64,000 bases of DNA from Paenalicyclobacillus mengziensis (lineage in GTDB: Bacteria > Bacillota > Bacilli > Alicyclobacillales > Alicyclobacillaceae). The notes under the pieces were generated by a model that saw only the letters and a list, made by a program, of their open reading frames with translations, did not search any database and was not told the origin of the DNA. The DNA lies in NCBI RefSeq assembly GCF_017298635.1, contig NZ_CP071182.1, positions 930,001 to 994,000 on the forward strand, in the 5' to 3' direction. Position numbers and translations under genes: made by a program. Below are positions 6,689-44,868 of this stretch, piece by piece; within the stretch, counting starts at the first letter, position 1, and each line of letters opens with the position of its first letter.

Positions 6689-8587
6689 ATGGACTTTCTC
6701 GAACGTCTAGGCGCTTTTCGGGCTGAAGCAGAGGGCTTGCGCTGGGAAGGCAAATTCGCAGATTATCTCAAACTTGTAAGGGCCAACCCGGGTGTCGCAA
6801 AGACCGCGCATGCCCGTGTTTATGACATGATTTCCGCGGCCGGAATCGATGTAGATGAAGATGGCCATCGACACTACAAATTTTTCGAAAAAGAGATTTT
6901 TGGACTTGATGAACCGCTCGAGCGTTTGGTTGAAGAGTACTTTCACGCAGCTGCACGAAGGCTTGAGGTCAGAAAGCGGATCTTGCTTTTGATGGGCCCT
7001 GTCAGTGGTGGCAAGTCCACTTTGGTAACCATGTTAAAGCGCGGACTTGAACGATTCAGCCGTATGCCAGAGGGCGCGCTGTACGCCATCGCAGGCTGCC
7101 CGATGCATGAGGAACCACTGCATCTCGTGCCGCCAGAACTCCGGGGTGAACTTGAACAGGAATATGGGGTGAAGATTGAAGGGAACCTCTGTCCGTCTTG
7201 TCAGATGAGGCTCGAGACAGACTACGGGGGAAGAATCGAAGATGTGATGGTCGAACGAATTGTGTTGTCTGAAGATAAGCGTGTCGGGGTCGGGACTTTC
7301 AGTCCTTCCGATCCTAAGTCCCAGGACATCGCCGACCTGACCGGCAGCATCGATTTCTCAACGATTACAGAATACGGCTCAGAATCTGACCCTCGGGCAT
7401 ACCGATTTGACGGCGAACTCAACAAGGCGAACCGAGGCTTGATGGAGTTCCAGGAGATGCTGAAGTGCGACGAGAAGTTCCTCTGGCATCTGCTCAGCTT
7501 AACACAAGAGGGGAACTTTAAAGCTGGGCGGTTCGCGCTCATCTCTGCAGATGAAATGATCGTTGCCCATACGAATGAGGCCGAATATCGTTCATTCATT
7601 GCAAACAAGAAAAATGAGGCGCTCCAGTCTCGTATGATTGTCATGCACGTGCCGTACAACCTTCGTGTCAACGATGAAGTCAAAATATACGAAAAACTTG
7701 TACGACAAAGCGACCTTCAGGGCATTCACATTGCACCGCATGCACTCAAGACAGCAGCCATTTTCTCGATTCTCACGCGTCTGAAGGAGCCGAAAAAGCA
7801 GGGCGTAGATCTGATAAAGAAACTCTATCTATACGACGGCCAATCGGTTGAGGGGTTGAAGGATACCGACCTCAAGGAGCTTAGAGTCGAATATCCGGAC
7901 GAAGGGATGTCAGGTCTTGACCCGCGTTACGTCATCAACCGCATCTCGACAGCACTCATTAAGCACGATACCACCTGTATTAACGCACTTGACGTCCTGC
8001 GAGCCCTGAAGGAAGGTCTCACGCAGCACGCCTCCATTTCGGCGGAAGACAAGGAACGCTTGCTCAACTTTATTGCCCTCGCACGCCAAGAGTACGACCA
8101 GATGGCCAAGACGGAGGTTCAGAAGGCGTTTGTATACTCTTTTGAGGAATCTGCCAAGACTTTACTCGAAAACTATCTGGATAACGTTGAGGCGTACTGC
8201 AGTTGGCAGAAGCTGCACGACCCGTTGACAGGTGAAGAGGTCGATCCCGATGAAAGGTTGATGCGTTCGATTGAGGAGCAGATTGGGATCTCTGAAAACG
8301 CGAAAAAGGCCTTCAGGGAAGAGATTCTGATTCGCATCTCCACCTACGCAAGGCGCGGAAAACGATTTGACTACCATTCCCACGACCGACTGCGTGAAGC
8401 GATAGAAAGGAAGCTGTTCGCTGACCTAAAAGACGTGGTGAAAATTACAACTTCCACAAAAACGCCGGATGCGCAGCAATTGAAGAAAGTGAACGAAGTC
8501 ACGGCAAGATTAATGGATGAACACGGGTACTGCCCGGTTTGTGCCAATGAGCTGTTGCGGTACACGGGAAGTCTGCTGAACCGATAG
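6689..8587 (+). CDS. prkA: Serine protein kinase PrkA (AAA-type N-terminal domain)
   Basis: 632 residues, matching the usual length of the PrkA/YeaG family. A Walker A motif, GPVSGGKST, lies near residue 108 in the N-terminal AAA domain, and the C-terminal region carries the PrkA kinase-like domain. In Bacillus PrkA is a sporulation-associated kinase, and in enterobacteria the homologous yeaG-yeaH pair sits in one operon. The start is supported by GGAAAGGGG. It is followed by yhbH and spoVR on the same strand, the standard order of this set, so it is probably the first gene of the operon that the two elements interrupt. prkA itself is intact. Confidence 0.93.
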   Translation: MDFLERLGAFRAEAEGLRWEGKFADYLKLVRANPGVAKTAHARVYDMISAAGIDVDEDGHRHYKFFEKEIFGLDEPLERLVEEYFHAAARRLEVRKRILLLMGPVSGGKSTLVTMLKRGLERFSRMPEGALYAIAGCPMHEEPLHLVPPELRGELEQEYGVKIEGNLCPSCQMRLETDYGGRIEDVMVERIVLSEDKRVGVGTFSPSDPKSQDIADLTGSIDFSTITEYGSESDPRAYRFDGELNKANRGLMEFQEMLKCDEKFLWHLLSLTQEGNFKAGRFALISADEMIVAHTNEAEYRSFIANKKNEALQSRMIVMHVPYNLRVNDEVKIYEKLVRQSDLQGIHIAPHALKTAAIFSILTRLKEPKKQGVDLIKKLYLYDGQSVEGLKDTDLKELRVEYPDEGMSGLDPRYVINRISTALIKHDTTCINALDVLRALKEGLTQHASISAEDKERLLNFIALARQEYDQMAKTEVQKAFVYSFEESAKTLLENYLDNVEAYCSWQKLHDPLTGEEVDPDERLMRSIEEQIGISENAKKAFREEILIRISTYARRGKRFDYHSHDRLREAIERKLFADLKDVVKITTSTKTPDAQQLKKVNEVTARLMDEHGYCPVCANELLRYTGSLLNR

Positions 8588-8726
8588 CCTGGACGACAGC
8601 ATGTCGGTCTGGCAACGCATGGTAACCTCCAAAATATGACGGAATTAGGGAATTGAAGCAGTACGACAGGTTTCAAAACGGTGGTACTCGACCGATATGA
8701 GATGGAATTCTAGGAGGGAGAACGAG

Positions 8727-9392
8727 ATGGCCGATACCGAGTTCAGCTTGCAGAAAGAAGACTGGTCCCTGCATCGCAAGGGTCATCAGGACCAGGAACG
8801 ACATCGGGAAAAGGTGAAGCAGGCCATCAAGGAAAACCTGGGTGACCTCATCAGCGATGAAAGCATCATTATGAGCAATGGGCGCCAAATTATTAAGATT
8901 CCCATCCGAAGTCTGGAGGAGTACCGTTTCCGCTACAATTTTAACAAGGGTCATCACGCCGGAACCGGGGACGGTGAAAGTAAGGTTGGCGATGTCATCG
9001 CCCAGGGAAAACCGGAAGGCCAAGCCGCGAAAGGCTCGGGTAAGGGCCAGGGAGCAGGGGATTCACCGGGAACTGACTATCTCGAAGCAGAAGTCAGTCT
9101 GGAGGAAATTCAGGCGATGCTTTTCGAAGAACTCGAACTGCCGAATTTAGCGCCAAAGACGCCAGACAGGGTTACGGTTGAAACCGTTGAATATAAAGAT
9201 GTTCGCAAAACGGGTCTGATGGGCAACATTGACAAGAAACGCACACTGCTTGAGTCCATCCGCAGAAATCAGAGAGAGCAGACAGGCAGGGTGCAAATCC
9301 TGCCTGACGACCTTCGCTTCAAAACCTGGGAGGACGTACGGAAACCGGAATCAAGCGCTGTTGTGCTGGCGATGATGGATACCAGCGGATCA
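8727..9392 (+). CDS. yhbH: yhbH 5' segment (split gene, codons 1-222)
   Basis: YhbH is the DUF444 sporulation protein partnered with PrkA. The ATG at 8727 follows AGGAGGGAG. Residues 1-222 match the N-terminal half: FSLQKEDWSLHRKG at the start, the basic/Gly-rich linker, then VVLAMMDTSGS. The frame then runs into foreign sequence (PDVT, stop at 9405-9407). The break lies directly after the last Ser of DTSGS, a metal-site-like motif of the von Willebrand A fold. The missing part, beginning MGLFEKY, is at 12585. Joining at the shared TCA gives DTSGSMGLFEKY in frame and a 388-residue protein, close to the usual length of about 390. Confidence 0.93.
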
Positions 9393-9412
9393 CCAGATGT
9401 TACATAATGGAG
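9370..9412 (+). other. attL of element 1 (left junction, crossover TC at 9390-9391)
   Basis: To the left are the yhbH codons for MMDTSGS; to the right is element sequence. The right half of the reconstructed attP, with arm ATGTTACATAA at 9397-9407, starts five bases after the TC. Confidence 0.8.
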
Positions 9413-43495: not shown

Positions 43496-43514
43496 CGACC
43501 TTGACCATCCTTTC

Positions 43515-43562
43515 CTACGCTTCATTCGAGTGTGCATTTGCTAAGGCTTTTCACCGTATGAA
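43515..43562 (+). other. attR of element 2 (crossover AA at 43543-43544)
   Basis: To the left is the attP half with CTTCATT at 43520-43526; to the right are the spoVR codons continuing KAFHRMK. Confidence 0.75.
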
Positions 43563-44868
43563 GATGGAATATGATTTCGGGTTAAGTCGTATTTATGAGC
43601 TCGTCATCAACTCTGATCCTTGTTACGCGTTTCTGCTCGACGGTAACTCGTTGCTGCAAAACAAGACCGTGTCTGCACACGTTCTGGCACACTGCGATTT
43701 TTTCAAGAACAACACGGCGTTTTCCAAAACGTCCCGAGACATGGTTGATAGGATGGCTTCCAATGCGGAGCGCATCCGGGGCTACGAACTGGAGTACGGA
43801 AGAAAACGCGTTGAGGCACTGCTCGATGCAGGCATGGCGATACAAGAACACGTGGACCCCTCACTCCATGGTTCTCGAGGGCGGGCGAGTCAGGAGCAAA
43901 ATCGACGTTATTCGATGGCCGACTCTCCAACACAAGACCGACGCCGGTCTCAGAACTCTGGCCAGGCGAGGGGGGGATACGAGGACCTCTGGGCGATGGA
44001 CGCATTACTCAATCAGAATGCGAGTGGTGCGTCGGTATTGGCCAAAGATACTGCTGCCCGGGACGGAGAGACAAGGCTTCGACGTAAAAACCCACCGCTG
44101 CCGCAGAAAGACATTATGCTGTTTTTGATTGAAAACAGTCCCACGCTTGAGGAATGGGAGCGGGATATCCTATCCCTGTTACGGGAGGAAATGCTCTACT
44201 TTTGGCCGCAAATTGAGACCAAAATCATGAATGAAGGTTGGGCTACGTATTGGCATCTGCGTATTATGCGTGAACTTGAGCTTGAAGAGTCAGATGCTGT
44301 GGAGTTTGCGAAAATGCACTCGGGTGTGGTGTTGCCGTCGAGAATGTCCATCAACCCATACCATGTGGGACTTGCCATCTGGGAGGACATTGAGCGGCGT
44401 TGGGATAATCCCACCGAGGAAGAGCGAGCGCGGTTCGGACGAGAACCTGGGCAGGGTCGAGCAAAGATGTTTGAAGTTCGTGAAACGGAAACGGATATGT
44501 CGTTTCTTCGGAACTACCTGACGAAGGACTTGGTGCACAACTTAGATTTGTACCTGTACCAGAAGGTCGGCAACGAGTGGCGCATTGTAGAGAAGGACTG
44601 GGAGAAAGTACGAGACCTCCTGTGTGCGGTCAGAGTCAACGGCGGCATGCCTGTTCTATACGTCGAGGACGGAGACTACAACCAGAACGGAGAACTGTAT
44701 GTCAAACACGCTTACGAGGGAGCGGAACTAGACCTCAAACATCTTGAGAAGACGCTGCCGTATCTGCAGCAACTGTGGGGACGGACCTGCCACTTACAGA
44801 CGGTGATTGAGGGGCGCGATGTGCTCTTTACGTCTGACGGCAAGAAGACACTCCGTAAGTTCATGTGA
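43545..44868 (+). CDS. spoVR: spoVR 3' segment (split gene)
   Basis: The rest of SpoVR, starting in KAFHRMKMEYDFGLSRIYELVINSDPCYAFLLDGNSLLQNK and running through HCDFFKNN, EDIMLFLIENSPTLEEWERDIL-like and EGWATYWHLRIMRELEL to FTSDGKKTLRKFM. There are no stops or frameshifts. An upstream open stretch (from 43306) is only antisense/out-of-frame read-through of the gerB end. Without the first 58 codons at 13082 it has no start signal of its own. The intact state of both halves suggests that the gene is still used after rearrangement. Confidence 0.94.

What the first reader, a model, noticed from the sequence alone, without database searches (positions are those of the whole stretch)
6689..44868. 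One operon, two independent excisions: prkA-yhbH-spoVR needs two recombinases to become complete
yhbH and spoVR are consecutive, overlapping genes, yet each carries its own element with different crossover bases (TC, AA), different arms and different recombinases. Only 672 bp of host DNA lies between the two elements. If both leave in the mother cell, the cell uses two switches in series to release the last two proteins of a kinase-associated module, an arrangement I do not know from other examples.
Basis: inference. Interest (0 to 1): 0.95.

Follow-up and report, generated by a model that had tools for sequence, protein, structure and literature searches.

The report
Spore operon cut at six sites
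In this Alicyclobacillus-group bacterium two neighbouring spore-formation genes are each split by a separate DNA element with its own recombinase gene, and relatives carry up to five such cuts in the same three-gene operon, so the spore mother cell would likely have to delete several pieces of DNA independently before it can make these proteins.

Summary
yhbH is cut at 9390/12582 (core TC, 3,192-bp element) and spoVR at 13256/43543 (core AA, 30,287-bp element), 672 bp apart. Removing both restores in-frame YhbH (388 aa) and SpoVR (499 aa). Each element carries one large serine recombinase (LSR).

Across 61 genomes searched, the prkA-yhbH-spoVR operon is cut at six recurrent codons: two each in prkA, yhbH and spoVR. 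I read 52 such elements in full, in 30 genomes. Each has an in-frame join at a shared core of 2 bp or more and one detectable LSR. LSR phylogeny follows the insertion site: five sites are single clades, Y1 is two. Four genomes have four elements on one contig; two genomes have five in all across contig breaks. Host pieces stay under strong purifying selection.

Most likely these are skin-like elements, each excised by its own recombinase in the mother cell. Excision was not observed, and promoter scans were uninformative. Single elements in spoVR (vrin) and multi-element nif genes of cyanobacteria are known; multi-site cutting of one sporulation operon is a new variant, as far as my searches show.

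The parts
6689..8587 (+). prkA, uncut in this genome (cut at site P0 or P1 in relatives)
   Evidence: Pfam AAA_PrkA + PrkA; 96% and 93% identical to prkA of the two congeners
8727..9391 (+). 5' part of yhbH, up to and including the crossover bases; motif DTSGS|MG
   Evidence: DUF444 N half; junction
9390..9391 (.). left crossover TC of the yhbH element (site Y1, attL)
9392..12581 (.). yhbH-intervening element (Y1), 3,192 bp with one copy of the core
   Evidence: rhodanese, PDO, small ORF and LSR shared with the G002 Y1 element
9537..9917 (+). cargo: rhodanese-domain protein
   Evidence: NCBIfam rhodanese matches below cut-offs
9984..10643 (+). cargo: protein disulfide oxidoreductase
   Evidence: TIGR02187 above cut-off
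10719..10756 (+). strong intrinsic terminator-like hairpin (17 pairs) between the prkA side and spoVR
   Evidence: consensus match only; 8 sites found, 4.6 expected in shuffles
10826..10999 (+). 57-aa ORF just upstream of the recombinase; candidate directionality factor
   Evidence: motif in 7 of 16 Y1 upstream windows and nowhere else in 1.43 million residues (pattern loosened after a stricter one gave 4 of 16); function untested
11005..12522 (+). LSR1, large serine recombinase (505 aa), Y1 clade
   Evidence: Resolvase + Recombinase + Zn ribbon; tree
12582..12583 (.). right crossover TC of Y1 (attR)
12584..13085 (+). 3' part of yhbH
   Evidence: DUF444 C half
13082..13257 (+). 5' part of spoVR; motif WSFGK|AF; overlaps the yhbH stop as ATGA
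13256..13257 (.). left crossover AA of the spoVR element (site S1, attL)
13258..43542 (.). spoVR-intervening element (S1), 30,287 bp with one copy of the core; metabolic and regulatory cargo, no phage domain in the 22 ORFs scanned with Pfam
   Evidence: nine of its ORFs co-linear with the 18-kb G002 S1 element
23456..24907 (-). LSR2, large serine recombinase of the S1 clade (likely start 24907; ORF extends to 25108)
   Evidence: domains; S1 clade 100/100; start inferred from the ribosome site
39627..43495 (+). cargo: GerA-GerC-GerB type germination receptor operon next to attR
   Evidence: Pfam GerA, Spore_GerAC, Spore_permease
43543..43544 (.). right crossover AA of S1 (attR)
43545..44868 (+). 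3' part of spoVR
   Evidence: SpoVR, SpoVR_C

Best explanation
Two different intervening elements split the consecutive genes yhbH and spoVR of one operon, and each is likely excised in the sporulation mother cell by its own site-specialised large serine recombinase (LSR1 at TC, LSR2 at AA), which would restore both reading frames. The two deletions are predicted to be independent of each other. Expression of SpoVR from the prkA side would need both, because the first element contains a strong terminator-like hairpin and the second separates the spoVR start from the rest of its coding region. The forespore would keep both elements, and so keep the recombinases and the germination receptor operon carried by the larger one. 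In the wider group the same operon is a landing field with six fixed sites. Each site is used by its own recombinase lineage (two lineages at Y1), and up to five elements occur in one operon.
For: In-frame restoration at shared cores in the window. In 52 of 52 fully read elements in 30 genomes an in-frame, motif-restoring join with a shared core of 2 bp or more exists (frame and motif were required by the search). One detectable LSR in each of the 52. 60 LSRs sort by insertion site: S1 100/100, Y2 100/97, P0 100/99, S2 98/98 and P1 100/100 are single clades, Y1 forms two, 7 changes against a shuffled mean of 42. attP arms are palindromic, with 32 of 52 at 12 or more of 20 against 1.6% of pairings across sites. 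Both parts of yhbH and the 3' part of spoVR are under purifying selection as strong as uncut prkA: dN/dS 0.034, 0.013 and 0.038 against 0.026 (G000-G002). Both LSRs are under purifying selection, 0.10 and 0.14. prkA, yhbH and spoVR are all marked sigma-E in a table of core sporulation genes (PMC3416734, table passages read). gerE, a mother-cell regulator gene, is also split by a 1,978-bp LSR element in this genome. Excision of spoVR and gerE elements during sporulation is reported in other species (PMC5025042, PMC4191935, PMC5595907, PMC6957869, passages read).
Against: No excision was observed. LSR2 sits 10.2 kb from attL, whereas in G001, G026 and G037 the S1 recombinase lies within tens of bases of attL. 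A sigma-E promoter scan upstream of the LSRs was no better than its control: 7 of 60 against 5 of 60, and the prkA positive control also failed, 1 of 24. No directionality factor was found for S1. The genome has a second, uncut but divergent operon copy (28-49% identity) that might cover some functions. The window's own Y1 arms are only marginally palindromic (11 of 20, reached by 5.6% of mismatched pairs). The spoVR 5' part is too diverged at synonymous sites for a dN/dS. Several multi-cut genomes are fragmented assemblies.
Confidence: 0.8

Rival explanations
1. The elements are fixed; yhbH and spoVR of this operon are dead pseudogene halves and the second, uncut operon does the work.
For: An uncut divergent prkA/yhbH/spoVR set exists at G000:C1:354493-358654.
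Against: dN/dS of 0.013-0.038 on the cut parts measured. An in-frame join exists for 52 of 52 elements. The second set is only 28-49% identical. G037, G043, G047 and G049, the most heavily cut relatives, show no second SpoVR copy (G047 is 83% and G043 94% complete).
Confidence: 0.06
2. The elements excise, but not under developmental control: they leave at low frequency in any cell or under stress, as mobile islands do.
For: LSR elements are mobile. The S1 recombinase of G001 is only 46% identical to that of G000 although the hosts are 95% identical in the PrkA segment compared, so the site was probably re-invaded. No sporulation promoter could be shown.
Against: The interrupted genes are listed as sigma-E genes, and gerE is cut as well. 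Halves under strong selection need regular rejoining. Known elements of this kind excise during sporulation.
Confidence: 0.1
3. The halves work as separate polypeptides without any rejoining.
For: Both halves are conserved.
Against: Cuts fall inside highly conserved motifs (DTSGS|MG, WSFGK|AF). No ribosome site was seen by eye before the first ATG of either 3' part. Relatives have the same genes uncut.
Confidence: 0.02
4. One recombinase, or one from elsewhere in the genome, removes both elements.
For: Nine further genes with a Recombinase domain exist in the genome, and LSR2 is far from its att sites.
Against: Different cores and arms; LSR clades track sites across 60 enzymes; each of 52 elements has its own LSR.
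Confidence: 0.03

Closest known systems
vrin element in spoVR of Geobacillus thermoglucosidasius C56-YS93 (Abe 2013, as cited in PMC4191935, passage read; the original was not read)
   Same: An intervening element in spoVR, a mother-cell-expressed sporulation gene
   Different: Reported as one element in one gene. Here two consecutive genes are cut and relatives have up to five cuts. Whether vrin sits at S1 or S2 was not checked.
skin element in sigK (B. subtilis, C. difficile) and SP-beta in spsM (passages read)
   Same: Site-specific recombinase, precise excision that restores a mother-cell gene
   Different: Those are active or defective prophages, one per gene. The window elements show no phage domains in the ORFs scanned. 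Two full-length, uncut sigK-type matches are present in this genome.
gin element in gerE of B. cereus ATCC10987 (PMC5595907, abstract and passages read)
   Same: Non-phage intervening element with serine recombinases, rearranged during sporulation; gerE is also cut in the window's genome
   Different: gin carries three recombinases; here one was detected per element
nif/hup interruption elements of heterocyst cyanobacteria (PMC4874684, passages read)
   Same: Several elements in one developmental locus (Rivularia nifD has four), recombinases mostly clustering by insertion site, removal during differentiation of a specialised cell
   Different: Other phylum and programme, and a mix of tyrosine and serine recombinases. 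Here all are LSRs in one three-gene sporulation operon.

Membership tests
Sporulation gene-intervening elements (skin/vrin/gin kind) | Element inside a coding sequence whose removal restores the frame | tested here: met
   window; 52 of 52
Sporulation gene-intervening elements (skin/vrin/gin kind) | Element encodes its own site-specific recombinase | tested here: met
Sporulation gene-intervening elements (skin/vrin/gin kind) | Interrupted gene is a mother-cell gene | tested here: inconclusive
   Listed as sigma-E genes in PMC3416734 (passages); not measured in this organism; promoter scan uninformative
Sporulation gene-intervening elements (skin/vrin/gin kind) | Excision during sporulation, mother cell only | not testable with these tools
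   needs PCR or sequencing of sporulating cells
Sporulation gene-intervening elements (skin/vrin/gin kind) | Recombination directionality factor | tested here: inconclusive
   Conserved small ORF upstream of LSR1 in 7 of 16 Y1 windows; none found for S1
Prophage or defective prophage | Phage structural or packaging genes in the element | tested here: not met
   No phage structural or packaging domain among 22 S1 and 2 Y1 ORFs scanned with Pfam; five further ORFs scanned with NCBIfam only; small ORFs and PHROGs not scanned
Large serine recombinases | Resolvase domain + Recombinase domain + zinc ribbon | tested here: met
   LSR1, LSR2

The most novel reading that the evidence does not exclude
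The prkA-yhbH-spoVR operon of Alicyclobacillus and its relatives is a bacterial 'split operon'. Six fixed insertion sites are each held by dedicated serine-recombinase lineages, and in the extreme cases the mother cell must carry out five independent DNA deletions before the operon encodes its three proteins. That would make operon expression a multi-input AND gate written in the chromosome and reset in every spore.
Probability: 0.6. Interest if true: 0.87.

Novelty: new variant of a known kind. Interest (0 to 1): 0.74.

Why it matters
In the papers I saw, programmed DNA deletion in spore formers is described as one element in one gene. Here a single three-gene operon is repeatedly colonised at six exact codons, with recombinase lineages that match the sites and pieces that stay functional by selection. 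It gives a natural series (one to five cuts) in which to test whether developmental excision is a cost, a timer or a safe harbour for mobile DNA. It also supplies 52 LSRs with both att sites read from genomes, for six target sites. The presence of a germination receptor operon inside the spoVR element suggests that elements lost from the mother cell are suitable places for genes needed only by the spore line (inference).

Tried and rejected
A sigma-E promoter scan (consensus recalled, not taken from a call) upstream of 60 LSRs gave 7 at rank 0.05 or better against 5 of 60 on the reverse strand; the prkA positive control gave 1 of 24. It carries no information and I do not use it.

A first junction finder overran alignments: it failed for G000 S1 and G002 Y1 and gave poor joins for about a dozen others. 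It was replaced by a search for joins that restore the conserved motif. Frame and motif restoration are therefore by construction there; what is tested is that a shared core of 2 bp or more exists at such a join. Some elements have several possible joins. For G008 Y2 the most palindromic join gave a duplicated QYN, and the plain join is among the alternatives. Two elements of about 131-135 kb (G017 Y2, G026 S1) and cuts across contig breaks were not joined.

The small-ORF motif upstream of LSR1 was loosened after seeing the sequences: the stricter pattern gave 4 of 16 windows, the looser one 7 of 16.

I looked for an att remnant beside LSR2 to explain its inner position and found none. I considered prophage (no phage domains in the ORFs scanned), misassembly (same cuts in other assemblies) and pseudogenes (dN/dS), and rejected them.

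Loci around prkA in 80 named genomes could not serve as an outgroup. In most of the Paenibacillus ones yhbH and spoVR were not found whole in the locus, at over 35% identity on the prkA strand.
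Full report
WHAT IS THERE. The window lies at 930,001-994,000 of a 5.25-Mb contig. The nearest named prkA matches are in Alicyclobacillus (where records of the window's own genome may be left out). prkA (6689-8587) is whole. yhbH is cut at 9390/12582 by a 3,192-bp element with crossover TC, and spoVR is cut at 13256/43543 by a 30,287-bp element with crossover AA; 672 bp of host DNA separates the inner crossovers. Joining the flanks gives a 398-codon yhbH frame (388 aa from the start with a good ribosome site at 8727) and a 499-aa SpoVR. The two genes overlap as ATGA. In the cut state YhbH ends at 9407 and SpoVR after 69 codons, so both proteins are truncated inside conserved motifs (DTSGS|MG, WSFGK|AF).

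THE ELEMENTS. The yhbH element (Y1) holds a rhodanese, a protein disulfide oxidoreductase, a strong terminator-like hairpin, a 57-aa ORF and LSR1, which ends 59 bp before the right crossover. The spoVR element (S1) holds an S9 peptidase, a trypsin-PDZ (HtrA-like) protease, a histidine kinase, glycosyltransferase and ligase genes, LSR2, transporters, two CoA-transferase genes each with an enoyl-CoA hydratase gene nearby, GntR regulators and a GerA/GerC/GerB germination operon next to the right end. No phage structural domain was found in the ORFs scanned. Nine window ORFs, LSR2 included, are co-linear with the 18-kb S1 element of G002, so the element is most simply inherited in the genus, with changes in cargo since. 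LSR2 lies well inside the element in both. In G001, G026 and G037 the S1 recombinase lies within tens of bases of the left crossover, so its inner position here is most simply explained by later insertions (inference).

THE OPERON IN RELATIVES. I searched 61 genomes for SpoVR, DUF444 and PrkA (the list was truncated); 57 of 61 have SpoVR. The operon is cut at six recurrent places: P0 (ISADE|MI) and P1 (CNWQ|KLK) in prkA, Y1 and Y2 (NQ|Y) in yhbH, S1 and S2 (KIMNE|GWA) in spoVR. I fetched regions of genomes that showed cuts and read 52 elements whose two ends lie on one fetched stretch, in 30 genomes: Y1 15, Y2 13, S1 8, P0 8, S2 7, P1 1. Cuts across contig breaks and two elements over 130 kb were left out of that count. 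Both yhbH and spoVR are cut in 12 of these 30 genomes. Four genomes have four elements on one contig: G049 and G009 (P0, Y1, Y2, S2), G043 (P1, Y2, S1, S2) and G047 (Y1, Y2, S1, S2). G047 (with P1) and G037 (P0, Y1, Y2, S1, S2) have five in all if contig breaks are bridged; the bridging is supported by the matching LSR type at the contig ends.

JOINS AND ATT SITES. For each of the 52 elements there is an in-frame join at the conserved motif with a shared core of 2 bp or more (frame and motif are required by the search). The attP arms are inverted repeats: 32 of 52 reach 12 or more of 20 matches, against 1.6% of arms paired across sites. The window's S1 scores 12 and its Y1 only 11, which 5.6% of the null reaches.

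ONE RECOMBINASE PER ELEMENT, LINEAGES BY SITE. Each of the 52 elements carries exactly one LSR by my detection. With eight more LSRs from incompletely read elements, 60 LSRs were placed on a tree with seven other LSRs of the window's genome. S1 (9), Y2 (17), P0 (9), S2 (7) and P1 (2) are each one clade with bootstrap 98 or more. Y1 forms two clades (12 and 4), between which one other LSR of the genome falls with weak support. The root is a midpoint and some long branches are flagged. LSR2 of the window is in the S1 clade and LSR1 in the larger Y1 clade. LSR orientation is fixed at five of the six sites (P0 is mixed, six minus and three plus). Y1 recombinase distances follow host PrkA distances strongly (Mantel r 0.85, 0 of 2000 permutations); the others less so (Y2 0.39, S1 0.50, S2 0.59, P0 0.32). 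G001's S1 recombinase is only 46% identical to the window's although the hosts are 95% alike in the PrkA segment used, so S1 was probably re-occupied.

SELECTION. Between G000 and G002 dN/dS is 0.034 (yhbH 5' part), 0.013 (yhbH 3' part) and 0.038 (spoVR 3' part), against 0.026 for uncut prkA. The spoVR 5' part is saturated at synonymous sites (pS 0.83, pN 0.079). LSR1 and LSR2 give 0.10 and 0.14. Many comparisons with G001 are saturated. The cut genes are thus maintained as working genes.

MECHANISM. Shown: cuts, cores, frames, one LSR each, site-lineage match, selection. Inferred: precise excision by the resident LSR, in the mother cell. The inference rests on the sigma-E listing of prkA, yhbH and spoVR (PMC3416734, table passages) and on studied elements: skin, SP-beta, vrin, gin (PMC4191935, PMC6957869, PMC5025042, PMC5595907, passages). 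It also rests on gerE, cut in this genome by a 1,978-bp LSR element whose removal restores a 75-codon GerE. The two excisions need no fixed order. The terminator-like hairpin inside Y1 suggests that spoVR mRNA from the prkA side needs Y1 out as well (inference). A candidate directionality factor for Y1 is the 57-aa ORF: its motif occurs in 7 of 16 Y1 upstream windows, and those seven are all the hits in 1.43 million residues (pattern loosened). None was found for S1. Promoter scans were uninformative.

BEYOND THE ORDER. In 141 genomes spread over the class (list truncated), 102 have SpoVR. SpoVR pieces consistent with splits at S1 (G087, G109) and at S2 (G071, G091, G102, G142, G143, G147, and G083 across contigs) occur in six other families; I did not read these junctions. 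Of ten such genomes (the nine just named and G123) two, G102 and G143, also have yhbH pieces split at Y2. The sites therefore look like old or repeatedly found targets.

WHAT IS KNOWN AND NEW. Single elements in spoVR (vrin) and gerE (gin) are known, and cyanobacteria have multi-element nif genes (PMC4874684, passages). An Alicyclobacillus phage in sigK was reported in 2026 (PMC13141910, passages). In the listings of ten searches of the held open-access library and the passages read I found no report of interrupted yhbH or prkA, nor of several elements in one sporulation operon. Most subscription papers are not held; Abe 2013 was not read.

Noticed in passing
L224 (G000:C1:3272000-3291999), gerE parts 10624-10812 and 8607-8717, LSR 8678-10309, all minus strand: gerE of the same genome is also split: a 1,978-bp element with a 543-aa LSR; removal restores a 75-codon GerE.
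   Followed up: yes
window 39627-43495: A GerA/GerC/GerB-type germination receptor operon lies inside the spoVR element, next to attR. If excision is mother-cell specific it is kept in the forespore. The G002 S1 element holds a distant GerA too (32% identity).
   Followed up: partly
L082 (G000:C1:352000-364000): A second, uncut and divergent set in the order yhbH-spoVR-prkA (28-49% identity) exists here, with matching copies in both congeners.
   Followed up: partly
window 10826-10999: 57-aa ORF upstream of LSR1 with a WF..EI.RW-like core, seen in the regions held only upstream of Y1-type recombinases; candidate directionality factor.
   Followed up: partly
G026:C1:533325-668437 and G017:C1:852890-984587: Very large elements (about 135 and 131 kb) in spoVR site S1 and yhbH site Y2; only their ends were read and the joins were not tested.
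   Followed up: no
L228 (G000:C1:4277000-4296999) 8511-11444: Two adjacent serine-recombinase-like genes (519 and 452 aa, by eye), which recall the girA/girB operon of the gin element; target gene not determined.
   Followed up: no
LSR tree: Recombinases of P0, P1 and Y2 form one larger clade, so elements at three sites of the same operon may derive from each other by retargeting.
   Followed up: no
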